Shown here: positions 5,639 through 34,116 of the stretch, one piece after another | Layout of the letters: each line of letters begins with the position of its first letter | How positions within the stretch are numbered: the first letter of the stretch is position 1 | Assembly: GCA_015061615.1 (NCBI GenBank) | Contig: SUWE01000027.1 | Location: forward strand, 1-34,833 | Length of the DNA: 34,833 bases | Direction: 5' to 3' | From: Lentisphaerota bacterium | GTDB lineage: Bacteria; Verrucomicrobiota; Lentisphaeria; Victivallales; Victivallaceae | Position numbers and translations under genes: made by a program | Notes under the pieces: model-generated | What the model was told of the DNA's origin: nothing | The model's database searches: none | The model's input: the letters and a program-made list of their open reading frames with translations, nothing else

Positions 5639-6409
5639 TTACTTTCCAGTCCAGCAACCTGAAAATGAGCTGTACGGACTGTTTGAAGATGTATAGGTCA
5701 TGCGGTCTGCGCTGGCATTGGTTTTTACTGATTCTGCGTGGCCGTCAACGTATGAGCAGTTCACCGAACCGCCGTGACGGCCGTCGAGCTGTCCGTTATA
5801 GGCATTGTCGGAGTACACCTGGGCGACGATATGCCAGCCTGTCTTGCGGCTTGAGCCGCTTTGATAAGTATCTGCAAAAAGAAGTGTTCCAGAAACTTTT
5901 TTCACGCGTGTCATTTTGCCGCCGAGCTTGAGACCGTAAGAGCTGTCATTAAGATACCAGTTGCGCCCCATTTGAGAATAAACAGTTATTGCTGAACCCC
6001 AGTCATCATAACCGGTTTCCCAGTTCTTTCTGAGGGTTGAAGCGCTTGTTATACATGCCCGGCGGTCGCTGTAGTCATTGACAAATGACGGGCATTTGAC
6101 GATTTCCATACCTGTATTATTGGGAACAAGAAGATAACTGAGCCATGCGACAGATTTTCCGTGCGGAGCCATATTGATGCTGTCAGGCGGCAGCTGGTCG
6201 TCATTTTCACCCAGATACATCGAATTCCAGGTGGAAACAGTTTTGTAATTTGAAAGACAGCTGGCTGATCTGCCCCTTTCTCTTGCGCTGTTGAGTGCAG
6301 GCAGCAGAATGGCCGCCAGAATGGCGATGATGGCGATAACCACGAGCAGTTCGATCAGAGTGAAGCCCATGGGCTTCACTTCTGCACGCAGAAGTGAATG
6401 GTTTTTCAT
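5639..6409 (-). CDS. Prepilin-like protein with H-x9-DG motif
   Basis: 256 residues. A short charged leader ends in Gly15, followed by [20 protein letters not shown] with Glu20 at the +5 position: a classic type IV prepilin / type II pseudopilin signal for cutting by PilD-type peptidase and insertion as an N-terminal helix. The ectodomain has four cysteines and the C-terminal H212-x9-D222-G223 motif ([16 protein letters not shown]) that defines the DUF1559-like family, which is greatly expanded in Lentisphaerota and Planctomycetota. Function in this family is unknown; a surface or periplasmic scaffold or presenter of secreted enzymes is my inference from context. AAGGAG lies 8 bases before the ATG. 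It is the first gene of the operon with the 1127-residue glycosidase-like gene. Confidence 0.92.
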
Positions 6410-6460
6410 TGTAAAAACTCCTTACTCAAGTATGTTTATCTTTCGGAGGCACCTTGACAT

Positions 6461-7113: not shown

Positions 7114-8988
7114 ATGATCGAAAACTGGTTCACCAACAAATGTATGACCCTTATCGGCATCAACGGCAGAGCGCTTGCGGGTGAAGATCTTAAAGTCGCT
7201 GAACGCGCTATCGAAGCCGCCAGAATGGCAAATCACAAACTGTGGACTGACCGTAACGGCAACTTCTATCACAAAGAACGCACGCTTTTTGCTTCTGCCC
7301 GACCGCTTATTGACGGCAACGGCAAACCTGTACGGATTTGCGGCCGTATGGTCAAAATCAAAGCCAAATTCTGCAGCAAATGCGGCGGTTCTGCTCCCGG
7401 CAGCTGGTGGCGTTGCGGCGGATGCGGCAAACTTATCGGCAATGAATCTCAGACTTGTCCCCATTGCGGCAGAACCCAGAATCCGATGATGCGTCTGGAT
7501 ATTTCTGACGGTTCATGGCGTAAGGAGGAAGAAATTTTTGCTGAGCGTTTTGAATTGCAGGATATTGCTCCGCTCATGCAGAAAGGGTTGAATGTTCAGG
7601 AAAGTCAGAATGCTGTTCTGCTTGAAGGCGGCGCTGTTACCGATGTCCTGTCTGCCGGATTTTACAAAACCCCTGATTTTGAAAACAACGAAGGCGGCGA
7701 TAAAAGTCTGGTGATGGTCGATTGCTCTGAATTTTCTCTGCCGGTATGTGTTGAAAGCATTCGTACTGCTGACGATATCGAAGCCGATTTGCATGTTGTT
7801 GCCGTACTCCGTTTCGATCCTGCAAACGCCAAAGAGTTCATGTGCAATCTCATGGGCAGTTCGCTCTATCTCAAGCAGGATGCTCTTACCGCTTCTCTCG
7901 GTTATGATGAAATTGCTCACTGCCTGCTCGGTGATATCGACACCGCCGCCCGTGAAATGTGCAACACCACCACCGTTGCGGAACTTTTCAAAAGTGCCGA
8001 TACCCGTATCAAACTTGAAAATCACATTGCCAATTCTCTTGCCCGCAATCTTTCAGCGATCGGCATGAGTTTTGTCCGTCTCAAAGAAGTTGAGTTTGAA
8101 TCTGAAGTTTTCACCAAACTGCGTGAAATGTCCGGTCAGGTTGAAACCAAACGGCGTGAAATAGAATTTATGCAGAGGGCAGATGAGCTTGCCAACGATG
8201 CCACCCGCCGTGAAGCGATGAGCGAGTATGAGATGGAAGATTTCATGGATCAGCTCGCTCACGAAAAGGGTATCAAAGATGATCTGCGTGTTCAGGAAAT
8301 CGAACGGCTGCGGAAAAACTGGGAAAGATCACAGGAAAAAGATGCACTTTCTCATGAGCATGACCTTGATGATATTCAGCAGATGCGCCAGCTTGAGCGT
8401 GACCGCACCGATGCTGAATTCAAGCAGGAAATGATCGACCTTGAACATAAACGCGATATCGAACGCCGTATCGCGGAACAGAATGCTTCGCTGGAATTTA
8501 CTCAAATCGAAAGCCGGATACAGAACATCAAAATCGAAGTTGCCGCCAAAAAAGCTGCCGCCGAGCAGGACGCTGCCGACAAGTGGCTCGATATCAAGCA
8601 GAAAAAACAGGCATTCAATCAAAATCAGAAAATCGATATGATAAAAGCCGCTCAGGGTGCCGATATTTCAGCCCTGATAATGGCAGAGGATGATCCTGAC
8701 AAAAGACGTGATCTGCTTGAGTTATATGAACAGCAGCAGCAGGCGAAAATGACACCTGAACTTCTGCTTGCCGCCGCCGCCGCCCGTGGAAACGCCGCTG
8801 CCGCCGCCGCTCTTGCAGGTATGAACAAAGATCAGCTTGATGTTATTGAACGCGCCAAAAACGAAAATAAAGAGATTTTTGAAAAGATGCTGCAGATGAA
8901 TGAACGCATGTTCAATCAGGCAACTGAAAATATGGCAAAAAACAACGGCGGTTCCAATACCACCACGACGACCCAGATCATCAAGTGA
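7114..8988 (+). CDS. Zinc-ribbon SPFH (Band 7) protein with long coiled coil
   Basis: 624 residues, no signal peptide or membrane helix visible. Residues 87-118 have three CxxC knuckles (CSKC, CGGC, CPHC), a zinc ribbon. Residues about 145-350 fit an SPFH/Band 7 domain of the soluble 'virion core-like' type (QNAVLLEGGAVTDVLSAGFY, then VAELFKSADTRIKLENHIAN). Residues about 350-545 are a charged coiled coil rich in Glu, Arg, Gln and Lys. An Ala-rich stretch (LLLAAAAARGNAAAAAALAG) and a Thr-rich tail (NTTTTTQIIK) follow. SPFH proteins oligomerise into rings or cages that organise membranes or hold partners. The next gene is an FHA protein 18 bases downstream, so a phospho-dependent assembly is plausible (inference). 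The start follows AGGAGCAGACAAA. Confidence 0.85.
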   Translation: MIENWFTNKCMTLIGINGRALAGEDLKVAERAIEAARMANHKLWTDRNGNFYHKERTLFASARPLIDGNGKPVRICGRMVKIKAKFCSKCGGSAPGSWWRCGGCGKLIGNESQTCPHCGRTQNPMMRLDISDGSWRKEEEIFAERFELQDIAPLMQKGLNVQESQNAVLLEGGAVTDVLSAGFYKTPDFENNEGGDKSLVMVDCSEFSLPVCVESIRTADDIEADLHVVAVLRFDPANAKEFMCNLMGSSLYLKQDALTASLGYDEIAHCLLGDIDTAAREMCNTTTVAELFKSADTRIKLENHIANSLARNLSAIGMSFVRLKEVEFESEVFTKLREMSGQVETKRREIEFMQRADELANDATRREAMSEYEMEDFMDQLAHEKGIKDDLRVQEIERLRKNWERSQEKDALSHEHDLDDIQQMRQLERDRTDAEFKQEMIDLEHKRDIERRIAEQNASLEFTQIESRIQNIKIEVAAKKAAAEQDAADKWLDIKQKKQAFNQNQKIDMIKAAQGADISALIMAEDDPDKRRDLLELYEQQQQAKMTPELLLAAAAARGNAAAAAALAGMNKDQLDVIERAKNENKEIFEKMLQMNERMFNQATENMAKNNGGSNTTTTTQIIK

Positions 8989-9006
8989 AGGTTTGAGGGG
9001 GGGGAA

Positions 9007-10521: not shown

Positions 10522-10529
10522 GAAAGGAA

Positions 10530-11297: not shown

Positions 11298-11320
11298 TAT
11301 AAAATAAGGAGATGGATTTT

Positions 11321-12142: not shown

Positions 12143-12164
12143 TTTCAATCAGGAGATATAAAAT

Positions 12165-13746: not shown

Positions 13747-13909
13747 GGTAATTTCAAAACTGATTCAAAAAGAGATTGAAAAATCAGCGTTGATGAGATC
13801 AAAGCGGTAGTTTGAGCGTGGCTATTGAATAAATAACCACCGAAAACGCTCCGCTTTGAGATCGCAGCGATGATTTTCAAGAATTTTTGAGGAGTTTTGA
13901 AATTGCCTC
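13745..13909. repeat. Nested palindromic intergenic repeat, family A (long form)
   Basis: GAGGTAATTTCAAAACT (13745-13761) pairs with 13893-13909 (one mismatch). The interior matches the element at 6531-6615 but has an extra 80 bases (13790-13869) between two CAGCG copies (13785-13789 and 13865-13869). That extra part is itself a hairpin: TCAAAGCGG/CCGCTTTGA, then GAGCGT/ACGCTC, then GTGGCTATT/AATAACCAC. It starts at the stop codon of the NagD remnant. Together with the promoter at 13958 it accounts for most of the 13747-14054 gap. Confidence 0.85.
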
Positions 13910-13957
13910 TCCCGACAAAATTTTTCATCAAAGACAATTTTTTGCAGTTGAATGTAA

Positions 13958-13986
13958 TTGACTTTTGCTGTTACTCATGCTACATT
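13958..13986 (+). promoter_or_regulatory. Promoter of the second envelope-protein unit
   Basis: TTGACT (13958-13963), exactly 17 bases, TACATT (13981-13986), 68 bases before the ATG at 14055. Confidence 0.6.
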
Positions 13987-16059: not shown

Positions 16060-16060
16060 T

Positions 16061-18734: not shown

Positions 18735-19535
18735 TCACTCGTCGCCGGCATGTTTGCGCATCCAGTTGCCCAGCGCTCCGGAGGAGGAAAATCCCAGTTC
18801 GGCGGCGATCTCTTTCAGGCGCAGGCCCCGTTTTTTGGCATCGGCAATATACTTTTTCCGCACGGAATTGATAAACTCACCAATGGTCGTTCCCGTCTCT
18901 TTGTGGAACACATGGGCAATATGACAGCGGCTCAAGCCTGCCATCACCGAAAGTTTTTCCAGTGAGCAATCTTTACCGTTGCAGCTGCAAATCATCGACT
19001 TTATCAACTCACTCACCGACGGTTCCGGAATATTCTTTTCGTTGCGCTGGATCATCAGCTCGTTGAAAAGAAAGTTCACCGGCGGCAGCATGAGATTTTC
19101 AACACTCTGTTCATCAGCTGTTTTGCGGGCAAAAAGTTTGTTCCAGCGCTGCATTATCAGCATGGAAAGTTCCTGCGGCAGATGATGAAAATTCTCTTTG
19201 GCACAAATCACTCCGCGTTCACCGACTTCGAGAATGGTGGCGCTCCACTTGCCGTTGATATGGTAGCACCAGCAGTGCAGAAGAGCGCGGTCGGCAGTGG
19301 TATAGCCGAATCCGTGCGGAACCCAGCTGTCTATGAGCATTACCGTTCCGGGAACAAGATGGTAGATCGAACCGTTGAAAAAATAATCCGACTCACCGGA
19401 AAGCACAAAGAGCATCTCTTCATGCGGGTGACCGCTGTTCTGCTGATCGTTCATTTTTACAACTTTTTCCGGAGGGGAAAAACGGGTGATTATCCGTTCT
19501 GCTCCGGCAGAAAGTTTCTTATCAAGTTCATCCAT
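18735..19535 (-). CDS. AraC-family transcription regulator with cupin-type sensor
   Basis: 266 residues. Residues about 20-100 form an AraC-type cupin (SGHPHEEMLFVLSGESDYFF, VPGTVMLIDSWVPHGFGY), expected to bind a sugar or a glycan breakdown product. Residues about 165-262 are the double HTH (CSLEKLSVMAGLSRCHIAHV, then FHKETGTTIGEFINSVRKKY, then LRLKEIAAELGFSSSGALGN). It diverges from the DegT-prepilin-DUF4838 operon with which it shares a -35 region (19589-19595), so it is probably the regulator of that operon. Confidence 0.92.
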   Translation of the reverse strand: MDELDKKLSAGAERIITRFSPPEKVVKMNDQQNSGHPHEEMLFVLSGESDYFFNGSIYHLVPGTVMLIDSWVPHGFGYTTADRALLHCWCYHINGKWSATILEVGERGVICAKENFHHLPQELSMLIMQRWNKLFARKTADEQSVENLMLPPVNFLFNELMIQRNEKNIPEPSVSELIKSMICSCNGKDCSLEKLSVMAGLSRCHIAHVFHKETGTTIGEFINSVRKKYIADAKKRGLRLKEIAAELGFSSSGALGNWMRKHAGDE

Positions 19536-19671: not shown

Positions 19672-20886
19672 ATGAACAATTTAGCTGTAAACGGCGGAAA
19701 AAAGATTTTTGAAACAAAATTGGAGCTTCCGGCATGGCCGCCGGTCTATCCTGAAACTGCTGACAGGATGAAAGAACTTTATCTCAGCCGCCAATGGTCA
19801 TTTTACGCTCCGCGCGAAGTGGAATTCAACCGCGCTTTTGCTGAATACACAAAATCAGGCAACTGCGTTATGATGGCTAACGGAACTGTCACTCTGGAAA
19901 TGGCGCTTCAGGCATACGGCATCGGCGAAGGCGACGAAGTGATCGTTCCCGCTCTGACCTGGCTTGCCACCGGTGAAGCGGTCGTCTACCGCGGTGCAAC
20001 TCCGGTGGTGGTGGATATCGAACCGGATACCCTCTGTATGGATCCTGCCAAATTTGAAGCGGCGATCACCCCGAAAACCAAAGCGGTCATTCCCGTACAC
20101 ATTTTCGGTTCTATCGCCGATATGGAAAAAATCAATGAAATCGCAAGAAAGCACAATCTCAAAGTCATCGAAGATTGCGCCCACGCCCACGGTGGTGAAT
20201 GGGATGGCAAACATGTCGGAACCCTCGGTGATGTCGGTTCATTCAGCTTCCAGCAGAGCAAATTGATGGCTTCCGGCGAAGGCGGCTGCTGTATCACCGA
20301 TGATGATGACCTTGCCGATACTCTGGGCAGACTTTCACATATCGGTTATCAGTACGGTTCAAAGCAGGGTCAGAAAGGTACTCCGCCGCCGGTGGGACTG
20401 CTCTGCCACAACTATCGTGTAACCGATTTTCAGGCGGAAATCCTGCTTTCACAGCTGGCGCACCTGCGTGAAGATACCGTTGCCCGCGCAAAAAATGCGG
20501 AAATCCTGCGTAAACGTCTCAACGCCATTCCCGGTGTTCAGGTTCAGGCGGCGGGCAGAAAAGCCACTTTGCAGAGCTACTACACCTACTGCGTTCTGAT
20601 CGACCACAACAGAATCAAAGAGGGCTTCAGCCGCGCCGATATCCTCAAAGCCATTCAGGCTGAAGGTGTTATGGCATTCGAGGGCTGGGGAGCGCCGATG
20701 TACCGCCAGAATCTCTGGACTGTTCCCGAAAACATGTACCGTACCGACGGCTGTGCTGTTGCTGAAAACATTATCGCCAACGACCTCACTATGATGAACT
20801 TGCAGTATCTCATGCTCAGCGAAGCCGATACTCACAAAGTTGCCGATGCCTATGAAAAAGTGTTGAATGTTTACCTTGAAAAGTAA
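19672..20886 (+). CDS. DegT/DnrJ/EryC1/StrS family PLP aminotransferase
   Basis: 404 residues, the usual size. AAAGGAG lies 5 bases before the ATG at 19672. Fold type I features are all present: the N-terminal LAVNGGKK start typical of the AHBA-synthase/inosamine-aminotransferase branch, GTVTLEMAL for the phosphate, EDCAHAHGG with D168 for the pyridine nitrogen, and the PLP lysine K197 in SFQQSKLMASGEGG. The enzyme moves an amino group from Glu or Gln to a keto-sugar or keto-inositol in sugar nucleotide or cyclitol pathways. It heads an operon with a prepilin-like and two secreted proteins, which is not the usual setting for nucleotide-sugar synthesis; it may act on a product of glycan breakdown (inference). 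Confidence 0.93.
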   Translation: MNNLAVNGGKKIFETKLELPAWPPVYPETADRMKELYLSRQWSFYAPREVEFNRAFAEYTKSGNCVMMANGTVTLEMALQAYGIGEGDEVIVPALTWLATGEAVVYRGATPVVVDIEPDTLCMDPAKFEAAITPKTKAVIPVHIFGSIADMEKINEIARKHNLKVIEDCAHAHGGEWDGKHVGTLGDVGSFSFQQSKLMASGEGGCCITDDDDLADTLGRLSHIGYQYGSKQGQKGTPPPVGLLCHNYRVTDFQAEILLSQLAHLREDTVARAKNAEILRKRLNAIPGVQVQAAGRKATLQSYYTYCVLIDHNRIKEGFSRADILKAIQAEGVMAFEGWGAPMYRQNLWTVPENMYRTDGCAVAENIIANDLTMMNLQYLMLSEADTHKVADAYEKVLNVYLEK

Positions 20887-20920: not shown

Positions 20921-21727
20921 ATGAGAAAAGCTTCCTGTGAGTCAAAGGAGGGCAGTTCAAAAAGTATCAGTAGAAACACTTTTACTTTGATAGAATTGCT
21001 CGTCGTCATCGCCATCATCGCCATTCTGGCATCAATTCTGCTGCCTGCGCTGAATCAGGCGCGTAAGCAGGGTGAAGTGGCAGCTTGTGTGAACAACCTG
21101 AAACAGATCGGTTCAGGCGTCATCCAGTACGGTATGGAGTATGATGACTTCATGCTGCCGTTTGACGGCAGATACCGCAATATGGGCGGAACAGTCAACA
21201 AAACCTGGCTTTATTACGCCCGTTTCCACCTGGCTATCAATGACCCGTCGCCAAGTACATCCAGTTCTGAAACCCGCAATGTTCCCAAAGATGCCAGTTT
21301 CGGTATCACCCATTGCCCGGCTTCCGGCAATCTCTCAGGCACCTGGAACTATCGCTGGCCGAGCTACGGTATGATGAAATATTTTATAGGCGGTCTGGAT
21401 CCAAACACTGTCAAAACATGGGAAAAAGGCTGGAAGTTCCATCATTATAAATCTCCTTCAAAGAAAGCATGGATAATTGATTCCATATATTCCACCACCA
21501 CTTACCATTTCAAAAAAACAGACTACACCAATATCGAAAATTACGGCAACAGTTATGTGGAAAATACTGGTGAATACGTCAACAGAACCCGTCACGGTCA
21601 GAAGTCAAATATCCTCTTCCCCGACGGTCATGTTCAGACATTTACCGAAGCTGCACTGAAAGCGGAAATCTCAAGCAAAGCCTATTTCAATCAGGTTGAA
21701 ATGTTCGGTTCAGGCAATATCAAATAA
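20921..21727 (+). CDS. Prepilin-like protein with H-x9-DG motif
   Basis: 268 residues. AAGGAG is 9 bases before the ATG at 20921. The leader of 20 residues ends in Asn-Thr rather than Gly, then [20 protein letters not shown] with Glu at +5. The processing site therefore lacks the usual Gly at -1. The body contains [20 protein letters not shown] and ends with [18 protein letters not shown], a correct H-x9-DG. Same family as 5639-6409 and like it directly upstream of secreted glycan-binding genes. Probably anchored through its N-terminal helix and exported by a type II/IV pilus-like machine encoded elsewhere. Confidence 0.9.
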
Positions 21728-21744: not shown

Positions 21745-22443
21745 ATGATGATGAAAAAAGTATTCTCACTTTTGGTTCTTTCAGCAATCATTCCGTCGCT
21801 CATTGCCGCTGATGCTCCAGAGGCGGCAGCCGCTCCCGCCGCCCCTGCCGCAGAAGCTGAAAAACCTGCCGAAGTTGTTGTGCCGGATGTTTTCAAAGAA
21901 GATTTCAACAACAACCGCCGTTATGTCGTTCAGAAAGTCCAGACGCACGATGCCAAGGGAAAGATGTCCAAACAGGTCAATACCGGCTGCCGCAGAGAGT
22001 ACAAAGACGGTGCGATGATACTCTACTACAAGCTCAATGACACCAACAACAAAAAAGATTACGGCTCATTTACTTTCGGTTTGGCAAAACGTCTTGATCT
22101 CAAAGGTTCCAATGTGCTTGAAATGCGTTACCGTGTGCCGAATGTCGGTATCGGCAATACTCTGACTTGGACTTATGCTGATGAAAAAGGCAAACTTCAC
22201 GGCGACTGGATCAATGTCCCCAGCCGTGCCGGTGAAGATTGGAAAACCCTGGCAGTGGAAATGGATAAGAGCGGTTTCAACGGCAAAAAACGCGCAGCAG
22301 CGGGTAAACCGATGCCGAAACCTGTGAAGCTGGTCACATTCCAGATCTACTCCCATGTCCGCATGGATGATGCCGAACACTCCATTGAGATCGACTATTT
22401 CCGTATTCCCGGTGTCGCCGCTGCTGCTGAAAGTGCAAAGTGA
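21745..22443 (+). CDS. Small secreted beta-sandwich protein related to the C-terminus of the neighbouring DUF4838 protein
   Basis: 232 residues. Three ATG codons in a row; GAGG lies just upstream. Signal peptide MMMKKVFSLLVLSAIIPSLIA, then an Ala/Pro/Glu linker. From about residue 50 (DVFKEDFNNNRRYVVQKVQT) it reads as a jelly-roll carbohydrate-binding-like domain. Its end, GDWINVPSRAGEDWKTLAVE through PKPVKLVTFQIYSHVR and EIDYFRIPG, clearly parallels the last 80 residues of the next gene (ADWIYFSRNE, FKPVKLTYFAIYSHPSGG, LLDYVRVTG). It is probably a free copy of a glycan-binding module. Binding target unknown. Confidence 0.75.
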   Translation: MMMKKVFSLLVLSAIIPSLIAADAPEAAAAPAAPAAEAEKPAEVVVPDVFKEDFNNNRRYVVQKVQTHDAKGKMSKQVNTGCRREYKDGAMILYYKLNDTNNKKDYGSFTFGLAKRLDLKGSNVLEMRYRVPNVGIGNTLTWTYADEKGKLHGDWINVPSRAGEDWKTLAVEMDKSGFNGKKRAAAGKPMPKPVKLVTFQIYSHVRMDDAEHSIEIDYFRIPGVAAAAESAK

Positions 22444-22467: not shown

Positions 22468-25455
22468 ATGAAAATTTTTCTTAAAAAAATTATATGGGCA
22501 TTTTTATTCTTGCCGGTTTTGCTTTCAGCGGCAGTTGTCGCTGAAAACGGCAAAAGCGATTACGATATTGTTATCCGCAAAGATGCGCCGCGTGTCACAG
22601 TTTATGCCGCCAAAGAGCTTGCCGATTACCTGAAAAAAGTTGCAAATGCCGATGTGAAGATCGTCAATGCCAAAGTTTCCGGCCGCAAAGCGATCTATGT
22701 CGGTTCCCACAGCGAACTGCCGAAAACGGCAGAATTTGATCAGGCGAACTACAACGGCAAAGAGCGTTTCCGTATTGCCGAAACCGCCAATGGTGATATT
22801 TCCATCATGGGGGCGGATTGTAAAGTTGAGCCGCTTTCCAGAAAAAACGGCGACTTCGGTCTGCTTTTCGGTGTTTATGAATTTGTCGAGCGTTTTCTCG
22901 GTGTCCGCTGGTACACCCCCGGTGTATTCGGTGAATGTTTTGAAAAACTTGCCAAAGTTGAAACTGCAAATTTGCCCATCGACCAGACACCTGCTTATTA
23001 CTCACGCGCTTACTGGCCGTGGACATGGAATGAATTCAGCCACAACGATGCACTGGCATTCAACCGCAGATTGCGTGCATTCGGTATTCGCGAAGGCAGT
23101 TCCAACCACTCAATGATGGATTTCCACTTTGCCTATCGTGACAGTAAGCCCGAAATTTTTGCTCTGCGTGCCGACGGCAACAGAGAGTTTGGTGCTTTCC
23201 GCCCCAATACCAAACCTGAACAGCGCAGCTGGGTACGTTATCCGCAGTACTGTCTGACTAATCCCGAATTTGTTAAAATTTACTGTGAATGGATCGATAA
23301 ATGGTACGCTGGCGATCCCCAGGTCAGAAAACTCTGGAAAGGTTATCACCCTGCGGAAAAATTCATCCACGTTTCACCCGACGACTGTTTCAACCTTGCA
23401 GAGTGCCATTGTGACAACTGTCAGGCGATGCATTCTGACAAACCGCGTGCCAGACAGAGCAATCTGGTCTACAGCTTTGTGACAAAAATCGCCAACTATG
23501 TGAAAGAAAAATATCCTGACAAAAAAGTTATCTGTCTTGCATACGAACACTATTACTGGCCGCCCGATTTCAAACTGCCCGACAATGTGGTGATCTCCAT
23601 CTGTGTCGACCCGTATTTCTTCTTCTTCGGCAGCAAGCGTTATCAGGAATCTTTTGAAAAGACTCTGAAAATGTGGAGCGAAAAGGCAAGCGAAATAACT
23701 GTCTGGCAGTATTATATGCCTTACCGCGACACCTATCCGTACTACATGCCCAATATCGCCAACGACTGGTATCGCCGCTATCCCAAAATCAAAGGCTGTT
23801 TCATCGAATTGAACGACACCGCTCTTGCCGGAAGACTTGCAGGCAGAGAAATGAAGATCAACCCCGCCCACAAAGGTCAGAAAACCACCGTTGACCTCGG
23901 TCAGAACCATCTGACACTGATCGCTTCAATGAAGTCGATGTGGGGCGCACCCTATGATGTGAAAGCGGAACTGGAACGCTATTACAAACTTTTCTACGGT
24001 CCTGCGGCTGTTCCGATGAAGAAATTTTTTGAAACTGCCATTTCCAAGTGGGAAAATGTGAAAAATACCACCGGCAATGTCAATGCAAGTTTCGCCAAAT
24101 TCTCCGGAAAGGAACTTTATGAGGATATCTACTCCGCTGAGGTGATGGATATTCTGGAAAACTCTCTGAAAGAAGCGGAAAAACTTGCTCCGGCAGGTTC
24201 GATTTATGCTGAACGCATCGCATGGCTGAGAAAATCCTACTTCAACGACTTCAACAAAGTTGCCAGAGCCTATCAGAAAGAGGCGAAACTTTCCAATGAC
24301 ACCGTGCTTCTGATGTCCAAAGTGAAAGCTCCGGTCATCGACGGCAATCTGGATGATGCCTTCTGGAAAGCTCTGCCGGATTACAATTTCCGCCTTGCCA
24401 ATGCGCCGATGCCGCCGCCGTTCGGCACGACCTTCAAAATGGGTTACCGCAACGATGGCAAACTCTATATCGGTCTGCGTGCCGAAGATCCGCACATCAA
24501 CTCTGCCCGTCTGCTCTGCAAAGAGCGTGACACCAATGTTTACAGCGATGACAGCATGGAGTTCTTCTTCCGCACCGATGATATGAAGCGCCCCAAAGCG
24601 TTCCGTAATATCACCATCAACCAGAATGGCGTCATTCTTGACTATGACACCATCAACGGCGGTATGAATCGCAAGTACAATACCAATGCTGAAATAAAAG
24701 TTTTCAAAGGCAAAGATTTCTACAATATCGAAATGGCTATCGACCTCAAAGAGATCGGTATCGACCCCGCTGTTGAAAACTCCATTCTGCGGATGAATAT
24801 CTGCCGCAACAAACTCAGCGGTGTGCCGCAGATGCACGGAACAAGCTGCTGGATACCGGTTTACGGCAATTTCCACAATGTGTCGCATTTGCCCGCCATC
24901 CGCATGGTCGGTCAGAAAGACCCAAAGAGTGATGAGCTTGCCGGTATTCCGAAAGTTTATCCATCCATTCAGGTCAGGGATAAAAAAGGTAAAGAGACCA
25001 ATGTGAAAAAGGGTGCTTCTCTGGAACGCAAAAACGGTGAAGTGAAAGTTAAATACACTTTCCCCTCCCGCAGAAGCTACGGAAATCTCTTTGTCTCAAG
25101 TTTGAACGGCGCGGATATGACCAACACTCCGTATATCGAGATACGGTTCAAAAATCCGTCAGAGAAACTTGCCTTGCAGGCGGTTTACAGCTACATTGAT
25201 GATACCGGCAAAGAACGCGCCGACTGGATCTACTTCAGCAGGAACGAAAAACATGACGTTTTCGCTGTCAGAGCCATCAATGTCGCCCGCGACGGTTACA
25301 ACGCCCAGAAGCGTATGCAGCAGGGCAAAGCACCGTTCAAGCCGGTCAAACTCACCTACTTTGCGATCTATTCGCACCCATCCGGCGGATTGCTCAACGC
25401 AGAATATCTGCTGGATTATGTCCGCGTGACCGGCAAGCCTGCTTCAGAAAAATAA
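22468..25455 (+). CDS. Secreted DUF4838 glycosidase-like protein with CBM9-like and C-terminal beta-sandwich domains
   Basis: 995 residues with a signal peptide (WAFLFLPVLLSAAVVA). Residues about 30-150 resemble the N-terminal domain of family 67 alpha-glucuronidases (VTVYAAKELADYLKKVANAD, FGLLFGVYEFVERFLGVRWY). Residues about 170-500 are the DUF4838 TIM-barrel domain, with FIHVSPDDCFNLAECHCDNC as its signature. Residues about 618-815 are a CBM9-like domain (KAPVIDGNLDDAFWKALPDY, YSDDSMEFFFRTDD). The last 170 form a beta-sandwich shared with the preceding gene. DUF4838 proteins are abundant in glycan loci of Lentisphaerota and Bacteroidota, usually without a known substrate; a uronic-acid or aminosugar polymer is plausible. 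The operon ends here at a terminator. Confidence 0.9.
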   Translation: MKIFLKKIIWAFLFLPVLLSAAVVAENGKSDYDIVIRKDAPRVTVYAAKELADYLKKVANADVKIVNAKVSGRKAIYVGSHSELPKTAEFDQANYNGKERFRIAETANGDISIMGADCKVEPLSRKNGDFGLLFGVYEFVERFLGVRWYTPGVFGECFEKLAKVETANLPIDQTPAYYSRAYWPWTWNEFSHNDALAFNRRLRAFGIREGSSNHSMMDFHFAYRDSKPEIFALRADGNREFGAFRPNTKPEQRSWVRYPQYCLTNPEFVKIYCEWIDKWYAGDPQVRKLWKGYHPAEKFIHVSPDDCFNLAECHCDNCQAMHSDKPRARQSNLVYSFVTKIANYVKEKYPDKKVICLAYEHYYWPPDFKLPDNVVISICVDPYFFFFGSKRYQESFEKTLKMWSEKASEITVWQYYMPYRDTYPYYMPNIANDWYRRYPKIKGCFIELNDTALAGRLAGREMKINPAHKGQKTTVDLGQNHLTLIASMKSMWGAPYDVKAELERYYKLFYGPAAVPMKKFFETAISKWENVKNTTGNVNASFAKFSGKELYEDIYSAEVMDILENSLKEAEKLAPAGSIYAERIAWLRKSYFNDFNKVARAYQKEAKLSNDTVLLMSKVKAPVIDGNLDDAFWKALPDYNFRLANAPMPPPFGTTFKMGYRNDGKLYIGLRAEDPHINSARLLCKERDTNVYSDDSMEFFFRTDDMKRPKAFRNITINQNGVILDYDTINGGMNRKYNTNAEIKVFKGKDFYNIEMAIDLKEIGIDPAVENSILRMNICRNKLSGVPQMHGTSCWIPVYGNFHNVSHLPAIRMVGQKDPKSDELAGIPKVYPSIQVRDKKGKETNVKKGASLERKNGEVKVKYTFPSRRSYGNLFVSSLNGADMTNTPYIEIRFKNPSEKLALQAVYSYIDDTGKERADWIYFSRNEKHDVFAVRAINVARDGYNAQKRMQQGKAPFKPVKLTYFAIYSHPSGGLLNAEYLLDYVRVTGKPASEK

Positions 25456-28336: not shown

Positions 28337-29473
28337 ATGGAAATTGCAGCTTACTACTTCCCCAATTACCACGTTGACAAACGCAATGAGGAGTTCCACG
28401 GTGCCAACTGGACGGAGTGGGAACTTATGCAGTGTGCGCGTCCGCGTTTTGCCGGACACCGCCAGCCGCGTGTTCCCGTCTGGGGTTACGAAGATGAGTC
28501 AATTCCGGAAGTTATGGGTAAAAAAATCCGTACCGCACAGGAGTACGGCGTCGATGTTTTTGTCTTTGACTGGTACTGGTATGACGGCAGAACTTATTTG
28601 CAGCGCGCTCTGGATGAGGGATTTCTCCCCGCGGTGAAAGGAACAGATTTCAAATTCGCTCTGATGTGGGCGAATCATGACTGGTACGACCGTCATCCGT
28701 GCAGTTTTGAAAATGCCAAAATGGAAAACTGCCGCCGGCTTTACACCTGCGATATCACGATGGATAATATTTCCGGCATCTGGGATCACCTTGTTGAAAA
28801 CTATCTCGGCAATGAAAATTACTGGAAAGTCGACGGCAAACTCTATTATTCCATCTATACTCCGCGCCTTTTCATCAACCGTCTGGGCGGAGCGGATAAT
28901 GCGAAAAAAGCTCTGGAACTTTTCCGCAAAAAGGTGAACGATGCCGGATTGGGCGAACTCCACCTCAACGCCGTGATGTATGACAATCTGGAGTCTTCAG
29001 CACAAAACAGCATGGATCAGCGTCAGGCGTGGTACGATACCGGCTTTGACAGCTTCACCAATTACAACAGCTCCGGAACTTCTCCGGAGTGGACGAAGTT
29101 CCCGGTGGTCGATCCCCGTGTTGCCGCAGAGGAGTTCACCGGAATAGTTGCCCGCAATCTTCAGCTTGATTGCGGAGCATTTTTCCCGGTCATCACCACC
29201 GGATTCGACTCCACGCCGCGCACCATCCAGTCCGATGTTTTCCGCGAAGGCTGCTATCCCTTTGTTCCGGTGCTGGAAAGCGACCCTGAAATCTTTTCCG
29301 AAACCCTTTTCACTTACGCAAAGCTGCTCAAGGACAAGCCGGAAAACGAAAAAATCATCTTCCTCAATGCGTGGAATGAGTGGACCGAAGGCAGTTACCT
29401 TGAGCCGGATACCCATTTCGGTTATGCAATGCTTGAAAAAATAAAAGCATTCAAAAATAGTGTCAAATCATAA
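28337..29473 (+). CDS. GH99-like / WbsX-type protein
   Basis: 378 residues, no signal peptide. The family signature is complete: AAYYFPNYHVDKRNEEFHGA at the start, then WTEWELMQCARPRFAGHRQP, VDVFVFDWYWYDGRTYLQ, FALMWANHDW and the C-terminal IFLNAWNEWTEGSYLEPDTH with the probable catalytic glutamates. The related GH99 enzymes are endo-alpha-mannosidases acting by an epoxide-type mechanism. WbsX-type members also occur in polysaccharide gene clusters. Without a signal peptide it would act in the cytoplasm. It heads the operon 13 bases before a prepilin-like gene. Confidence 0.9.
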   Translation: MEIAAYYFPNYHVDKRNEEFHGANWTEWELMQCARPRFAGHRQPRVPVWGYEDESIPEVMGKKIRTAQEYGVDVFVFDWYWYDGRTYLQRALDEGFLPAVKGTDFKFALMWANHDWYDRHPCSFENAKMENCRRLYTCDITMDNISGIWDHLVENYLGNENYWKVDGKLYYSIYTPRLFINRLGGADNAKKALELFRKKVNDAGLGELHLNAVMYDNLESSAQNSMDQRQAWYDTGFDSFTNYNSSGTSPEWTKFPVVDPRVAAEEFTGIVARNLQLDCGAFFPVITTGFDSTPRTIQSDVFREGCYPFVPVLESDPEIFSETLFTYAKLLKDKPENEKIIFLNAWNEWTEGSYLEPDTHFGYAMLEKIKAFKNSVKS

Positions 29474-29486: not shown

Positions 29487-30122
29487 ATGAAAAAAGCCCG
29501 TCGTTTCAGTTTTTCAATGGTGGAACTTCTGCTTGTTATCGCAGTATTTTCCATACTTTCACTGCTTTTATGTACCGCAGGTGAAGCAGCAAAAAAAGAT
29601 GCCAAACTTGCCATCTGCGCCGCCAATATGAAAGAACTGGTGAATAAAATCCACTTATACGATGCTGAACACGGGCAGCTTCCGCCGGTATGGGTTCCTG
29701 CCAAACCGTTGTGGTATTTCTGGTCGAAACACCTTGACCCTTCGCCGCTGCGGAACAAACTTTTCTGCTGTCCTGCGGATATCCGCAGTGCGCACATGTA
29801 CGAAGAAACCGACCCGTTGAGTGAAGAAATCCGCATGTCGCATGACCACAGTTACGGCATGAATGCCACACTTCACACCTACAATCCCGCCAAACCGCCG
29901 ACCTTCCGCAAAAAACTTGCCCGTCCGGAAAGAACCATCGTCCTCGGCGACGGTATCGGCCCCATCCTTCAGCCGCGCGACAAATTCGGTGTTCCCCGCC
30001 ACGGCAGCCGTTACCACTACGTCACCGTTTCCGGCGCTCAGCGTCTGCTGACCGGAACTGAACTTGGAATCATCAAAAAAGGCATTTTAACAAATCCGAA
30101 AAAGGAGGATTGGTCTTTATGA
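29487..30122 (+). CDS. Prepilin-like protein with degenerate H-x9-DG motif
   Basis: 211 residues. AAGGAG is 7 bases before the ATG. The leader ends in Ser8, followed by FSMVELLLVIAVFSILSLLL with Glu13 at +5; Ser replaces the usual Gly at -1. The body has AICAANMKELVNKIHLYDAE and CCPADIR, as in the other two prepilin-like proteins. At the C-terminus PRHGSRYHYVTVSGAQ keeps the histidine and spacing but has SG in place of DG. The stop codon overlaps the ATG of the next gene (ATGA), so translation is coupled to that of the 927-residue secreted protein. Confidence 0.88.
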   Translation: MKKARRFSFSMVELLLVIAVFSILSLLLCTAGEAAKKDAKLAICAANMKELVNKIHLYDAEHGQLPPVWVPAKPLWYFWSKHLDPSPLRNKLFCCPADIRSAHMYEETDPLSEEIRMSHDHSYGMNATLHTYNPAKPPTFRKKLARPERTIVLGDGIGPILQPRDKFGVPRHGSRYHYVTVSGAQRLLTGTELGIIKKGILTNPKKEDWSL

Positions 30123-32902
30123 AAAAATTTATTGTTTCCCTGCTGCTTCTGGCGGCACTCATCCACCTCGGTGCGAAGGAGATAAAACTCCGTGAATTTT
30201 CCTTTACTCCGCGTAAAAACGGCAAATTTCTGCTGACCCGCGAAGGTGCGGCGGATGCCCGCGGATACTTCTTCATCCACAACGGAAAAACCAAAAAACT
30301 TGAAAAGATAAAGGGGAAGGTCAAGGACGATACCCAGACGCTTACAACTTCAAACTGCGCCATCACCATCCGTTACACTCCGCGCAGCCGCATGATACTT
30401 GCGGAAACCACCATAACCAATACGACCGATAAAGAAATCTGGATCGAACCGGGTATGGGAATGATTTTGCCGCACACCGGCAAAGAGTATTTCTGGAACG
30501 GTGTCGACACCCGCAAGACCGCCGGTAAAGAGATCGCCCGCAAAGGATTGAAAGCGAAACCGGAAAAACACACCGGCGCTTTCGGCTCTCCGCTGGCACT
30601 GACCGTCCTTGCCGCGCCGGAACACAGCTGGTCACTCGGTAACGTGATGTTTGAATTGACAAGCTACAACGCCGCACGTTTCGTTCCCGAAGGGGATAAG
30701 TGCCGCATCGAATACAGCCGCCGTCTGGTGCTTGCTCCGGGGTGCAGTGAAAAATTCAGCTTCGTCATCGGTGCAACGGAGACCGCCTTCGGTAAAGAGG
30801 AAGGCGCTATTCAGGCATATTACGACTCCTTCCCCGAAGTGTGGGTCCCGGCAGTCGGTTACGACAACAAATATATCTGGAACGCTCACGCCATGTACGC
30901 TGTCTGGCGTTACAAACCCGATTACGAAACTGAACGCCGCTTCCATTCGCGCTGGGAGTGGGCGTATGTTCCCTACAAACGGTGCGGTGATATCTTCGGA
31001 CGTCCGGAATTGTGGAACTACAAACCGATGGGACACCCCTTCCGCCCCGGATTCATCTGGTATATGGGCGGTGAGTTCTTCGACTACCGCACATTGAGCT
31101 GTGAGGAGTTCCACAAAAAGAGAAAGAGCGTCTTTGACCGTTACGGCAAAAAGTTCGGTTACGCCTTCTATGCCGATGCTTCCGGAACTTTCTGCGAACT
31201 GGCGCTGGCACGGCAGAAATATCCTGATGCGATCAATACCGACCGCGATGAGGGAACGGTATTTATCTTTCCATCCTGGAGTACCTCACATGACAACGAA
31301 GTGCGCGTTTTCCCCTACAAAACGACCTTTGCCGAACAGTTGAAAAAAGATGTTCTGGATTTGAACAAAGAGCTTGACCTGCCCGGATTCAGCCTCGACT
31401 GCTGCGGCGGCGGAGCAAAATACCGCGGACCTGCGAGCAAAGACCCCTCAATGCCGTTCCGTGCCTATGATGAAAAGGGGGTTTACGTCGATCAGGGTGT
31501 GGCGATCCAGAAATTCATCGACTTTCTGCATAACGATGTCGTTCCCAATGCCGATTACCGCACCAAACCCTTTATCGCCGCCAACGGTTCACTCAAATGC
31601 GACGTCCACATGATCGAAAAAAGCGTACTTGACCCGGTGTTCAATACGATGATGCCCTTGTGGCGCTACATTTACGGTGCATTGCCGGGAGTCATCCACG
31701 GTCAGGGTTACGCGATCGACCGGCTGATCCCGGAGTGGAGACAGCTCAATACGGCTGAGTTCCTCGACCGTTTCACGACCCTTGCCGTGTACAGCGTATT
31801 TTCAGAGTTCCGTTACGGTCTTACCGCCTCACGGTGCATCTACAAAGGCAACGCGCTGGCGCAGTACAGTATGCCGGAATTGCTGGAGTGCATCAAATAC
31901 GGCTGGCAGGCGCAGACTCCGGTAAGTTGTGACAACGGCGGAAAAATCCTCTACAAATCCCGTTTTTCACGCGGTGAAAACACCATACTCTTTTTCGGCA
32001 ACCCCTACCGTTATGATATCGAAACGAAATTCGGTGTCGCCAACCGTCTGCTGGGTACTGCTCAATATATTTTCAACCGCAAAATGCGCGACAATGCCGC
32101 ACTGGAACAGAAGATCGTCAACGGCGAAACTGTGTTCAGCTGCAATCTGCCTTCGCGTTATCCGGTGCTGTTTGAAGCTCTCTGCGGCTTGAGCAATGTC
32201 CCTGAAACTGAGGTCGGTGTCAAAGTCAATAGTGCAAAGGATTTGAATAAAATCCGTCACGAAATTAAATTTCTTGTCAGTGAAGAATTTACAACGAAGA
32301 TCCTTCCCCGGATGATCTTCGACTTCCACCCGGCGGTGATCACCCTTGACGGAGTTGAGGTCAAAGCGGATGAAGAAGTGACAGTCGGTAAAAACTCCAT
32401 ACTGGTCATTGAATACACCTCAAAGGATTTTGCCGCAGGCAGTAAAGAGATAACAGAGTTCCCCTATCTCAACAAAATGATGGAACCTGCGTTCAGCATC
32501 CGGCTGACGGATAAAAACTCTGCGGCGGAAAAGGAACAGGCGCAGAATATCGCAGATTACTTCAAATTCTGCGTCACCCGCAACCTCGTCAATCCGGCAG
32601 AAATCAAAATCAAAAGCGGCAGCGATGCCGTCACCGGAGCGGAGATCGTGCTTGACTTTTCCGCAGAAAAAGAGGGTATTTTCAGAGAAGACAGCGTAAT
32701 TGCCGTCCGCGCAAAAGATGCTTACAACGGCGAAGAACTGGTGCGCAAACTGAGCTTTGCCATGGATAAACGCTTTGAGTTCTTCTTCGGTATCGAGAAT
32801 GCCGACGGCATCCCCGGCGGATTGCCCGATCAGCTCTCGGTACGCGGCAAATATGTTCCGGTGCGGATGAAGCGGTGCTTTGAAAGCCGGGGGGCAAAAT
32901 AA
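30119..32902 (+). CDS. Large secreted protein, glycosidase-like, family not recognised
   Basis: 927 residues. AAGGAGG is 10 bases before the ATG. Signal peptide KKFIVSLLLLAALIHLGA. Residues about 20-250 read as a beta-sandwich (SRMILAETTITNTTDKEIWI), then a probable TIM barrel (about 270-680) with RPGFIWYMGGEFFDYRTLS, GYAFYADASGTFCELALA, LDLPGFSLDCCGGGAKYRGP (D426 is a candidate nucleophile), KPFIAANGSLKCD and LPGVIHGQGYAID. A C-terminal beta domain follows. The plan resembles GH36/GH31-like or GH101-like enzymes but I cannot place it in a family. It lies in an operon with GH99-like, prepilin-like and mutarotase-like genes, so it probably acts on a glycan outside the cell. Confidence 0.7.
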   Translation: MKKFIVSLLLLAALIHLGAKEIKLREFSFTPRKNGKFLLTREGAADARGYFFIHNGKTKKLEKIKGKVKDDTQTLTTSNCAITIRYTPRSRMILAETTITNTTDKEIWIEPGMGMILPHTGKEYFWNGVDTRKTAGKEIARKGLKAKPEKHTGAFGSPLALTVLAAPEHSWSLGNVMFELTSYNAARFVPEGDKCRIEYSRRLVLAPGCSEKFSFVIGATETAFGKEEGAIQAYYDSFPEVWVPAVGYDNKYIWNAHAMYAVWRYKPDYETERRFHSRWEWAYVPYKRCGDIFGRPELWNYKPMGHPFRPGFIWYMGGEFFDYRTLSCEEFHKKRKSVFDRYGKKFGYAFYADASGTFCELALARQKYPDAINTDRDEGTVFIFPSWSTSHDNEVRVFPYKTTFAEQLKKDVLDLNKELDLPGFSLDCCGGGAKYRGPASKDPSMPFRAYDEKGVYVDQGVAIQKFIDFLHNDVVPNADYRTKPFIAANGSLKCDVHMIEKSVLDPVFNTMMPLWRYIYGALPGVIHGQGYAIDRLIPEWRQLNTAEFLDRFTTLAVYSVFSEFRYGLTASRCIYKGNALAQYSMPELLECIKYGWQAQTPVSCDNGGKILYKSRFSRGENTILFFGNPYRYDIETKFGVANRLLGTAQYIFNRKMRDNAALEQKIVNGETVFSCNLPSRYPVLFEALCGLSNVPETEVGVKVNSAKDLNKIRHEIKFLVSEEFTTKILPRMIFDFHPAVITLDGVEVKADEEVTVGKNSILVIEYTSKDFAAGSKEITEFPYLNKMMEPAFSIRLTDKNSAAEKEQAQNIADYFKFCVTRNLVNPAEIKIKSGSDAVTGAEIVLDFSAEKEGIFREDSVIAVRAKDAYNGEELVRKLSFAMDKRFEFFFGIENADGIPGGLPDQLSVRGKYVPVRMKRCFESRGAK

Positions 32903-34116
32903 TGAAACAGCGTCTGTTCATTTCCCTGCTGCTGCTTGTTTCCGGATGCACTGCGGCAAAGAAGCCGGTATCTGCGGTCAAAGATACCGCCATTCCGATG
33001 GAGCATTGCGAAACAACGGAGATAATCCACCCCAGAGTCACACTGGATAACGGTTTATGGAAACTTTCGCTCATCCCTTCGACAATGGGGGGATTCGACC
33101 GCTTTTACAGTGCAAAGCATCCGGAAAACCTCTTTTGGGGCATATCCCACAGCAAAACTGTCACCGGCGGATTGATCGAGCGGAATATCACTCTCGGACA
33201 CATGCTTGTAGAAAGATTCTGGGGCGTAAATGGTATCGACGTATCGCTCATGCCGATGCAGGTGACCGCTTCCGGAAAAAACTTTGTGGAACTGTACGCC
33301 TCACCCTACGGAGCATCGGCAGTGGCTCTGCGCCGCAGAGTGACTCTGCCGGAAGGCGAAAACGCGATTCTGGTCAACGGAAAAGTGACCAATCTTGCAA
33401 ACCGTGAACTGAAAATCCGTCCGTGGATAAATTATGTTCCGCGTGAGGGCAGAACCATCCGTCTTATCCCGGCGAAAGGCAACGTCGGTCAGACCGGGGT
33501 CGGCAGTACCAGCCGGATGGCGGAAGATGGAATTTACAGCTTATCCAAAGAGCGCAACGTTTTTCTGCCGCCGGTAAGAAACTTTATTGCGGTGAATTAC
33601 CAGCCGGAAAATTGTACCGTGGCGATCCTGCCGGAAAACAGCGACCTTGCTGACAGCGCATTTTACATGTATAATGGAACGATCGCCGGAAAAAGAAGCG
33701 GCGGAACCATCGAATATATCATCAAAGGTACGCCGCTTAAAAAGGGTGAATCTCTGGAATACAGTTACCGTATCGCGGTTTATGAAAATATGCCGCGTAT
33801 AAGGGATATCGCCGGAACTGTTGCCGTCGATGCGGCAGTTGAAGGTAAAAAACTGACGGTGAAACTTGCGGTTTTCAGGAGTGAAGAATCACAGAAACTC
33901 CGTGTGCAGCTCAAATCCCCTGCCGGAAAGGTCATCACTCTGCCGGAAAGGGAAACGATAGCGCTTTCACCGGAAAAAACGGTGGAAATCGTTTATGAAC
34001 TGCCCGAAAACGCCGATGACAAATGGGTTATCAGCGGAGATATCGGGGGGAACAAATTTGAATTGCTCAAACTTTTCCTTGATACAAGTGCCGACCTCGG
34101 AGACAATTTCAAGTAA
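32902..34116 (+). CDS. Lipoprotein with probable galactose-mutarotase-like beta-sandwich
   Basis: 404 residues. Starts one base inside the upstream stop codon (TAATG). Lipobox LLVSGC at residue 16. The text resembles the beta-supersandwich of aldose-1-epimerase and GH-associated domains: VTLDNGLWKLSLIPSTMGGF, FWGISHSKTVTGGLIERN, LRRRVTLPEGENAILVNGKV, LKIRPWINYVPREG. The last 100 residues form a separate Ig-like domain (KLTVKLAVFRSEESQKLRVQ). No catalytic residues can be named. It is likely a surface glycan-binding or mutarotase-like partner of the preceding enzyme; an unrelated beta-sandwich cannot be ruled out. Confidence 0.65.
   Translation: MKQRLFISLLLLVSGCTAAKKPVSAVKDTAIPMEHCETTEIIHPRVTLDNGLWKLSLIPSTMGGFDRFYSAKHPENLFWGISHSKTVTGGLIERNITLGHMLVERFWGVNGIDVSLMPMQVTASGKNFVELYASPYGASAVALRRRVTLPEGENAILVNGKVTNLANRELKIRPWINYVPREGRTIRLIPAKGNVGQTGVGSTSRMAEDGIYSLSKERNVFLPPVRNFIAVNYQPENCTVAILPENSDLADSAFYMYNGTIAGKRSGGTIEYIIKGTPLKKGESLEYSYRIAVYENMPRIRDIAGTVAVDAAVEGKKLTVKLAVFRSEESQKLRVQLKSPAGKVITLPERETIALSPEKTVEIVYELPENADDKWVISGDIGGNKFELLKLFLDTSADLGDNFK

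What the first reader, a model, noticed from the sequence alone, without database searches (positions are those of the whole stretch)
5639..34116. Prepilin-like gene paired with large secreted glycan enzymes three times over
At 6409-2243, 20921-25455 and 29487-32902 a prepilin-like gene lies directly upstream of a large secreted glycan-active protein (12-bp gap; one small gene between; ATGA overlap). The three enzymes are not related to each other, so the pairing is not simple duplication. This suggests each prepilin-like protein is a dedicated partner of its enzyme: a display, assembly or export helper. The sequence shows the order and coupling; the function is inference. If right, it would be a cell-surface glycan capture system different from SusCD.
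Basis: partly seen in the sequence, partly recalled or inferred. Interest (0 to 1): 0.82.

Follow-up and report, generated by a model that had tools for sequence, protein, structure and literature searches.

The report
Pilin-like genes paired with glycan enzymes
In this bacterium many genes for pilus-type proteins each sit directly in front of a gene for a large secreted protein, often a sugar-degrading one, far more often than chance allows, which suggests that such enzymes have their own pilus-like partner at the cell surface.

Summary
The window's draft genome (2.7 Mb; probably Lentisphaeria, inferred from its nearest named relatives) has 83 mapped prepilin-type genes. Of 72 that share [16 protein letters not shown], 44 of 68 evaluable lie directly, or one small gene, upstream of a large signal-peptide protein; shuffled gene order gives 9.4 +/- 2.8. 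Named Lentisphaeria loci repeat it (21 of 37 downstream, 4 of 33 upstream); Verrucomicrobia loci do not (3 of 30). DUF4838 enzymes have a prepilin directly upstream in 6 of 12 genomes of the order, 0 of 17 elsewhere. The genome has a T2SS operon and one prepilin peptidase gene over cut-off; no SusD was found. One pilin-like family (window 29487-30122) precedes one enzyme family at 16 of its 20 strongest places, 7 of 11 not used to build the profile. Small cassette proteins can copy a domain of their own enzyme (5 of 21). Best reading: PUL-like cassettes whose private pseudopilin, assembled by a shared T2SS, exports, holds or feeds its enzyme. Dedication is supported; contact, export and capture are inferred. 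Expanded pulG-like pseudopilins are in print, one in an alginate cluster; this pairing was not found in our literature searches.

The parts
5639..6409 (-). prepilin 1 (256 aa; [21 protein letters not shown]9-DG-type head)
   Evidence: AF2 model with long N-terminal helix 18-68 then strands, pLDDT 69.4
6375..6398 (-). perfect palindrome TTCACTTCTGCGTGCAGAAGTGAA (11-bp arms) inside the leader-coding part of prepilin 1
2243..5626 (-). enzyme 1, 1127 aa, signal peptide, GHL6-like (below cut-off), GH42 trimerisation domain, C-terminal LamG-like (below cut-off)
   Evidence: 69%-identical paralogue at C40:36523-39873 also directly behind a prepilin
18735..19535 (-). AraC-type regulator with cupin domain, divergent from cassette 2
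19672..20886 (+). DegT/DnrJ/EryC1-type aminotransferase upstream of prepilin 2
20921..21727 (+). prepilin 2 (268 aa; residue before FTLIEL is Thr, not Gly)
21745..22443 (+). small signal-peptide protein, free-standing copy of the C-terminal domain of enzyme 2; beta-sandwich of carbohydrate-binding type in a moderate-confidence model
   Evidence: (28.6% identity, E about 1e-16)
22468..25455 (+). enzyme 2, 995 aa, signal peptide, DUF4838 + CBM9; residues 830-993 match the small protein
28337..29473 (+). WbsX-family protein upstream of prepilin 3
29487..30122 (+). prepilin-like 3 (211 aa), homologous to the second, mostly leaderless pilin of a conserved cassette
30119..32902 (+). enzyme 3, 927 aa, signal peptide, no known family; conserved partner of the pilin-2 family
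32902..34116 (+). 404-aa lipoprotein-type protein; genes of similar size (370-394 aa, signal peptide) follow the enzyme in several relatives (homology among them not tested)

Best explanation
These are PUL-like cassettes in which a secreted glycan-active protein is encoded with its own accessory pseudopilin. Shown by sequence: a shared N-terminal helix joined to divergent heads; position directly upstream of the enzyme; sugar-type regulators often next door; a T2SS operon in the genome. Inferred: the common helix lets these prepilins be processed by one prepilin peptidase and assembled by the shared T2SS platform (GspE, GspF, secretin), while the private head, sometimes with a free-standing carbohydrate-binding-like protein, holds the cognate enzyme or its glycan, so that the enzyme is exported and kept, or fed, at the cell surface. 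The most likely single step is cassette-specific export or retention of the enzyme through the T2SS pseudopilus.
For: Pairing: 44 of 68 against 9.4 +/- 2.8 shuffled; directional. Among 68 expanded-family prepilins with a co-directional next gene the median gap is 25 bp, 54 within 50 bp. 72 of 83 prepilins share the same first 16 mature residues (this string defined the group); residues 17-31, not used to pick them, are 79-100% the same while codons vary (synonymous identity 0.24-0.74, expected 0.18-0.61), so selection is on the protein. Whole-sequence identity of 19 others to prepilin 1 is 28-37% except one of 59%, the invariant columns being mostly N-terminal. T2SS operon secretin-E-F-G-H-I-J-K; one Peptidase_A24 gene over cut-off, one weak match below it. 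In the class T2SSG is found in 54 of 57 genomes with more than 15 prepilin candidates and 2 of 8 with 15 or fewer. Prepilin and DUF4838 candidate numbers rise together (Spearman 0.58 in 60 genomes, 0.79 in 17 of the genus). Upstream genes: GntR in 13, AraC HTH in 7, LacI in 4 of 69. Pilin-2 and enzyme 3 linked at 7 of 11 new places. DUF4838 with prepilin directly upstream in 6 of 12 genomes of the order, 0 of 17 elsewhere. Small protein copies a domain of its own enzyme in 5 of 21 cassettes. Elsewhere in Verrucomicrobiota, a pulG-like pseudopilin sits in an alginate cluster reported as upregulated like an operon, its genome holds 67 homologues, and the authors suggest that the T2SS exports the alginases (PMC13274419, section 17 read).
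Against: No contact, export or localisation is shown. Head-enzyme co-variation is weak. 24 of 68 expanded-family prepilins are unpaired by the strict rule. The same enzyme families occur without a prepilin: DUF4838 in 6 of 12 places within the order and 17 of 17 outside, enzyme-1 homologues in 5 of 6. The genome also has two further GspE/PilB-type ATPases and a platform gene, so assembly might be by type IV pilus machinery. Prepilin-rich genomes G061 and G176 lack T2SSG at the threshold used; with a cut at 40 candidates the association is weaker (37 of 39 against 19 of 26). Prepilin-rich G019 and G064 have no DUF4838 match. Of 19 partners scanned one by one (random from 59 outside the window), 7 had a glycan-related family over cut-off, 5 only below it, 5 none, and 2 were plainly cytosolic enzymes.
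Confidence: 0.5

Rival explanations
1. Glycan-capture pilins: the prepilin heads bind the polysaccharide itself, as SusD does for SusC, and present it to a periplasmic or surface enzyme; contact with the enzyme is not needed.
For: Sugar-type regulators and carbohydrate-binding modules in the loci, no SusD match, diverse heads. DUF1559 proteins have been annotated as solute-binding proteins (PMC2754498 passage).
Against: The AF2 model of prepilin 1 is not confident in the head and gave no meaningful PDB match; the carbohydrate-binding-like modules are found in other genes of the cassettes.
Confidence: 0.25
2. Co-regulated attachment pili: each prepilin is a pilin variant expressed with an enzyme set so that cells adhere to the matching substrate; pairing reflects co-regulation only.
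For: Further GspE/PilB-type ATPases and platform gene; regulators upstream; weak head-enzyme co-variation; enzyme families that occur without a prepilin.
Against: Position just upstream of the enzyme with median gap 25 bp and linkage of one pilin family to one enzyme family at 7 of 11 new places are more specific than co-regulation requires.
Confidence: 0.17
3. Abundance only: both families are so common that neighbours arise by chance or by local duplication.
For: 83 mapped prepilins and 114 large signal-peptide genes among 845 genes of the fetched stretches.
Against: Shuffles and upstream control, Verrucomicrobia contrast, unrelated partner families.
Confidence: 0.02

Closest known systems
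H-X9-DG / PulG-like expanded prepilins (TIGR04294, TIGR02532, DUF1559/PF07596)
   Same: N-terminal prepilin motif, head of about 200 aa with a Cys and H..DGH, large copy number
   Different: Here 44 of 68 evaluable expanded-family copies lie upstream of a large secreted protein; residue -1 is seldom Gly or Ala; gene 3 belongs to a subgroup that mostly lacks a leader
Alginate cluster pgaptmp_000046-60 of Verruconatronum alginivorum (PMC13274419, section 17 and passages read)
   Same: pulG-like pseudopilin inside a polysaccharide-lyase cluster reported as upregulated on alginate; 67 homologues in the genome; T2SS export proposed
   Different: One cluster in another lineage, one proteome replicate per treatment; no one-to-one pairing described in the section read
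Type II secretion system (GspG-K pseudopilins)
   Same: Same N-terminal helix type; T2SS operon in the same genome
   Different: Cassette prepilins lie outside the gsp operon, beside their putative cargo
SusCD polysaccharide utilisation loci
   Same: Regulator, binding proteins and glycan enzymes together
   Different: No PF07980 match in the draft genome; a prepilin takes the place; SusC not tested
Fimbriimonas ginsengisoli (Armatimonadetes) PulG expansion (PMC4072686, passages)
   Same: 79 PulG-type genes in one genome
   Different: The passage reads them as pili or T2SS parts; no enzyme pairing mentioned in it

Membership tests
H-X9-DG prepilins (TIGR04294 with N_methyl/TIGR02532) | prepilin N-terminal motif over cut-off | tested here: met
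   Genome scan: all three over the PF07963 cut-off. As proteins only gene 1 passes PF07963; genes 1 and 2 pass TIGR02532, gene 3 is not listed
H-X9-DG prepilins (TIGR04294 with N_methyl/TIGR02532) | C-terminal H-X9-DG domain over 19 bits | tested here: inconclusive
   Gene 1 16.5 and 19.8; gene 2 15.7; gene 3 none
DUF1559 (PF07596) | score over gathering cut-off | tested here: not met
   Gene 2 22.6 against 23.3; genes 1 and 3 no match
Type II secretion pseudopilin | gene within gsp operon | tested here: not met
   gsp operon is on contig C65; cassettes are on many contigs
Type II secretion pseudopilin | similarity to GspG/PilA over the N-terminal helix | tested here: met
   Family profile matches PilA 1.5e-16 and GspG 5.7e-8, N-terminal part only
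Type II secretion pseudopilin | processed and assembled into the pseudopilus | not testable with these tools
   needs experiment
SusCD PUL | SusD lipoprotein | tested here: not met
   No match to PF07980 at E 0.1 in the draft genome, 84.65% complete; other SusD models not searched
SusCD PUL | SusC-type TonB-dependent transporter | not tested
   -
Glycan-active partner enzymes | known glycan-related domain | tested here: inconclusive
   Enzymes 1 and 2 yes, enzyme 3 none; 12 of 19 random partners, 7 of them over cut-off; 6 of 8 named partners, 4 over cut-off

The most novel reading that the evidence does not exclude
One T2SS serves dozens of cargoes through exchangeable, cargo-specific pseudopilins: a constant helix plugs into the common machine and a private head, encoded next to the cargo, selects and displays it. 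This would be a plug-in adaptor solution to T2SS cargo recognition and a surface glycan system without SusCD, with leaderless pilins as a built-in second subunit.
Probability: 0.3. Interest if true: 0.92.

Novelty: new variant of a known kind. Interest (0 to 1): 0.74.

Why it matters
How the T2SS recognises its cargo is an open question (general knowledge, no call). Bacteria that seem to carry a separate pseudopilin for many of their secreted enzymes would give dozens of natural pairs to test. It would also explain part of a very large gene family of unknown function (270-300 loose first-look candidates in some genomes of the family) and suggest a glycan strategy that is not SusCD. Victivallis vadensis DSM 14823, a named strain, has such pairs in loci L139 and L201 (the L201 partner has a GH42 domain over cut-off, the L139 partner no family).

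Tried and rejected
Chance pairing rejected by shuffles. DNA-level 5' cassette swapping as cause of the shared helix: synonymous sites only somewhat more alike than expected, so rejected as the main cause. Strong genome-wide co-variation of heads and enzymes: not found. Foldseek of prepilin 1 against PDB: only chance matches, E above 2. PDB sequence search with enzyme 3's family: one chance-level match; with the C-terminal domain of enzyme 2: none. Plasmid search with prepilin 1: no match. Free-standing domain copies in named loci: only 3 triplets, none matched. A general excess of RNA folding before FTLIEL: not found, mean energy was weaker than in controls (-7.2 against -8.1) and strong hairpins no commoner (14 of 74 against 115 of 643), although perfect palindromes are enriched. 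Conservation of pair 1 outside this genome: 1 of 6 places. Literature: searches listed no paper that I recognised as describing this pairing in Lentisphaerota; the library is open-access PMC only, and most listed papers were seen as listings only.

Limits: own gene caller and own signal-peptide rule; stretches chosen around prepilins plus 15 background stretches; pairing counts drop genes whose neighbour is cut off (4 of 72 expanded-family prepilins, 1 of 11 others, 105 of 762 other genes). Four of 87 N_methyl hits were not mapped to called genes; C7:35220 proved to be another prepilin before a 1182-aa secreted protein and is not in the counts. Correlations use loose first-look candidate numbers; 5 of 65 class genomes without a listed DUF4838 row were dropped. 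Named loci were labelled by their record titles; 5 of 80 were not evaluable downstream and 3 had no called gene at the match. In one search, 8 of 12 prepared named partners were scanned. One search used the 29 DUF4838 places outside this genome that one search had given as loci (best match per genome); some run into contig ends. Family lists were capped at 25 of 50 and 25 of 120 families.

Full report
WHAT IS THERE. The window is contig C52 of a 2.7 Mb draft genome, 84.65% complete. Its class is not named by any tool; the nearest named loci are mostly Lentisphaeria and Victivallales, so Lentisphaeria is an inference. All three prepilin-enzyme arrangements are present as described. The prepilins resemble each other mainly in the N-terminal part; the three large proteins are unrelated to each other. 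Enzyme 1 has weak GH42-type domains, enzyme 2 has DUF4838 and CBM9, enzyme 3 has no known family.

IS IT CHANCE? The genome scan gave 87 N_methyl matches, 78 of them over cut-off; 83 mapped to genes. Among 78 prepilins with an evaluable neighbour, 47 have a signal-peptide protein of 400 aa or more directly downstream, or after one small signal-peptide gene, within 100 bp; among other genes 85 of 657; upstream of prepilins 6 of 81. For the expanded family alone 44 of 68; for the other prepilins (T2SS and similar clusters, and window gene 3) 3 of 10; without any signal-peptide rule 56 of 68 against 214 of 676. Shuffling gene identities inside each stretch 2000 times gave 9.4 +/- 2.8, maximum 20.

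IN OTHER GENOMES. From 80 named loci, Lentisphaeria and Victivallales show the partner downstream in 21 of 37 and upstream in 4 of 33 evaluable cases; Verrucomicrobia 3 of 30 and 2 of 31; unnamed or other phyla 2 of 5 downstream. The loci were picked by likeness to the window's prepilins. Starting from the enzymes instead: of 29 DUF4838 places in other genomes, a prepilin with FTLIEL lies directly upstream in 6 of 12 within the window's order (2 of 4 genus, 3 of 6 family, 1 of 2 order), 0 of 5 elsewhere in the class and 0 of 12 elsewhere in the phylum. Homologues of enzyme 1 in other genomes: 1 of 6, with a 5-bp gap in the called start. So the pairing looks like a trait of the order, and not every enzyme has it.

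PAIR 3 IN DETAIL. Homologues of enzyme 3 occur in 9 of 194 genomes of the phylum sample, own included. In the genus and family a common order is canonical prepilin, second pilin-like protein of about 205-219 aa, enzyme, then a signal-peptide or lipoprotein gene of about 370-395 aa. Window gene 29487-30122 aligns with that second pilin (23-41% identity). The other eight aligned members begin only five residues before the conserved Glu: they keep the Glu and the hydrophobic stretch but have no leader as called; in six of the eight the open frame reaches only 2-7 residues further, in the two of G094 it is longer. The window member has a leader, and the canonical prepilin of its cassette is absent. 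Searching 148 genomes of the class with this family, at the 20 strongest places the next gene is the same enzyme family in 16. Nine of those were the places the profile was built from, chosen because they lay beside the enzyme; of the 11 new places 7 show it, one (C76) is followed by a 924-aa secreted protein that I did not compare, and three in another family of the class do not, although in G191 the enzyme homologue lies about 1.7 kb away on the other strand.

CASSETTE LAYOUT. Genes upstream of prepilins match GntR (13), periplasmic-binding-like sugar domain (13), AraC HTH (7) or LacI (4) among 69 scanned (one gene can count more than once). Partners match DUF4838, GH123, DUF6259, GH106, GH42, CBM4/9, CBM9 and LamG-like families among 62 scanned. 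One-by-one scans of 19 random partners gave 12 glycan-related (7 over cut-off, 5 only below), 5 without family, 2 cytosolic. In 5 of 21 cassettes with a small gene between, that gene is homologous to a domain of its own enzyme and to no other partner at E 1e-3; 2 more matched only other partners. In the window it is the C-terminal domain of enzyme 2; the model (pLDDT 66) matches agarase domains and carbohydrate-binding modules, E from 4e-5, TM-scores about 0.5 or less. Unrelated jelly-roll proteins score similarly, so this means a beta-sandwich of carbohydrate-binding type at best.

MACHINERY. One T2SS operon: secretin, GspE, GspF, GspG-type, three more pseudopilins, GspK. Two further GspE/PilB-type ATPases with a platform gene, four weaker ATPase matches, perhaps PilT-type, one prepilin peptidase over cut-off and one weak match below it, no PF07980 SusD. 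In the class, T2SSG is present in 56 of 65 genomes; the three same-genus genomes with only 8-9 prepilins (G022, G034, G067) lack it and have no DUF4838 match; G061 and G176 are counterexamples, prepilin-rich without T2SSG.

HOW IT MAY WORK. The helix is conserved in protein while its codons vary (the first 16 residues defined the group, residues 17-31 did not); the rest diverges. A constant part that fits a common machine and a variable part encoded beside its partner is what a set of adaptors would look like. I therefore favour export or retention of the enzyme through a shared T2SS by cassette-specific pseudopilins. Against it: weak head-enzyme co-variation, the same enzyme families without prepilins, no structural evidence of contact, and type IV pilus machinery as an alternative platform. 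Capture of glycan by the heads is the main rival.

WHAT IS KNOWN. Expansions of PulG-like or DUF1559 genes are in print: 79 in Fimbriimonas ginsengisoli (PMC4072686, passages), 74 DUF1559 genes in Rhodopirellula baltica (PMC2754498, passages), 67 homologues of one pulG-like gene in Verruconatronum alginivorum, where that gene lies in an alginate cluster reported as upregulated like an operon, another pseudopilin is over-expressed on alginate, and the authors suggest T2SS export of the alginases; one proteome replicate per treatment (PMC13274419, section 17 and passages). I found no description of one-to-one pairing in Lentisphaeria. Hence new variant of a known kind.

SIDE FINDINGS. Residue -1 before Phe is Gly or Ala in 6 of 49 prepilins of named Lentisphaeria loci and in 39 of 39 of Verrucomicrobia loci (several loci share a genome); in the window's genome 11 of 72, and the genuine T2SS pseudopilins share the loss. 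A hairpin-forming repeat of about 151 bp, matched in 25 of 34 genomes of the genus with up to 54 matches in one but none in this genome, lies at prepilin motifs in 26 of 30 inspected copies (best matches, not a random draw). In the window's genome short perfect palindromes precede FTLIEL in 15 of 74 prepilins against 10 of 645 control positions.

The 16-of-20 figure is now given with its selection (7 of 11 new), searches were added, and the number of partners over cut-off is stated. The added DUF4838 result supports a lineage-wide pairing and the enzyme-1 result speaks against universal pairing; I left the odds as they were.

Noticed in passing
L279:202-352 and L288-L317; own example of another such element L064:4423-4570: Hairpin repeat elements sit in frame inside prepilin genes between a first, broken FTLIELLV motif and a second, intact [11 protein letters not shown] motif (6 distinct frames with two motifs). 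The 151-bp query is matched in 25 of 34 genus genomes, up to 54 times in one, none in the window's genome. Of 30 inspected copies (best matches) 26 lie at a prepilin motif and 22 abut it by my reading of the printed list; the script's own tally, which missed 1-2 base overlaps, was 9. Resembles in-frame palindromic elements of Rickettsia (recalled).
   Followed up: partly
window 6375-6398; 15 of 74 own prepilins: Perfect palindromes (arms of 8 bp or more) in the 60 nt before the FTLIEL codons, 15 of 74 against 10 of 645 control positions; the C52 leader differs from those of C55 and C93 by a change in one arm matched by a change in the other.
   Followed up: partly
named loci L135-L214; window 20921, 29487; L081 T2SS pseudopilins: The Gly/Ala before the prepilin cleavage site is mostly lost in Lentisphaeria loci (6 of 49) but kept in Verrucomicrobia loci (39 of 39), and also lost in the genuine T2SS pseudopilins of this genome, hinting at a prepilin peptidase with relaxed specificity.
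   Followed up: partly
L128, L132, L121, L123-L125, L129, L074, L284: Pilin-like proteins without a leader as called that keep Glu and the hydrophobic stretch (MRNYKEL...); 7 in the fetched parts of the window's genome (three further hits of that scan are ordinary prepilins called with a short start).
   Followed up: partly
window 21745-22443 and four other cassettes: Small secreted protein between prepilin and enzyme is a free-standing copy of a domain of that same enzyme, 5 of 21 cassettes; not seen in the 3 triplets of named loci.
   Followed up: yes
window 7114-16059: Co-directional row of genes: large zinc-ribbon/coiled-coil protein, FHA-like protein by eye, several lipoproteins or signal-peptide proteins; looks like one envelope-related system.
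   Followed up: no
window 13294-13746: 150-aa HAD/NagD-like C-terminal part by eye, apparently lacking its N-terminal half; possible remnant.
   Followed up: no
L093 (own contig C12:13364-15773): Three prepilin-type genes before a 1185-aa protein; resembles a Verru_Chthon-type cassette (recalled), separate from the expanded family.
   Followed up: no
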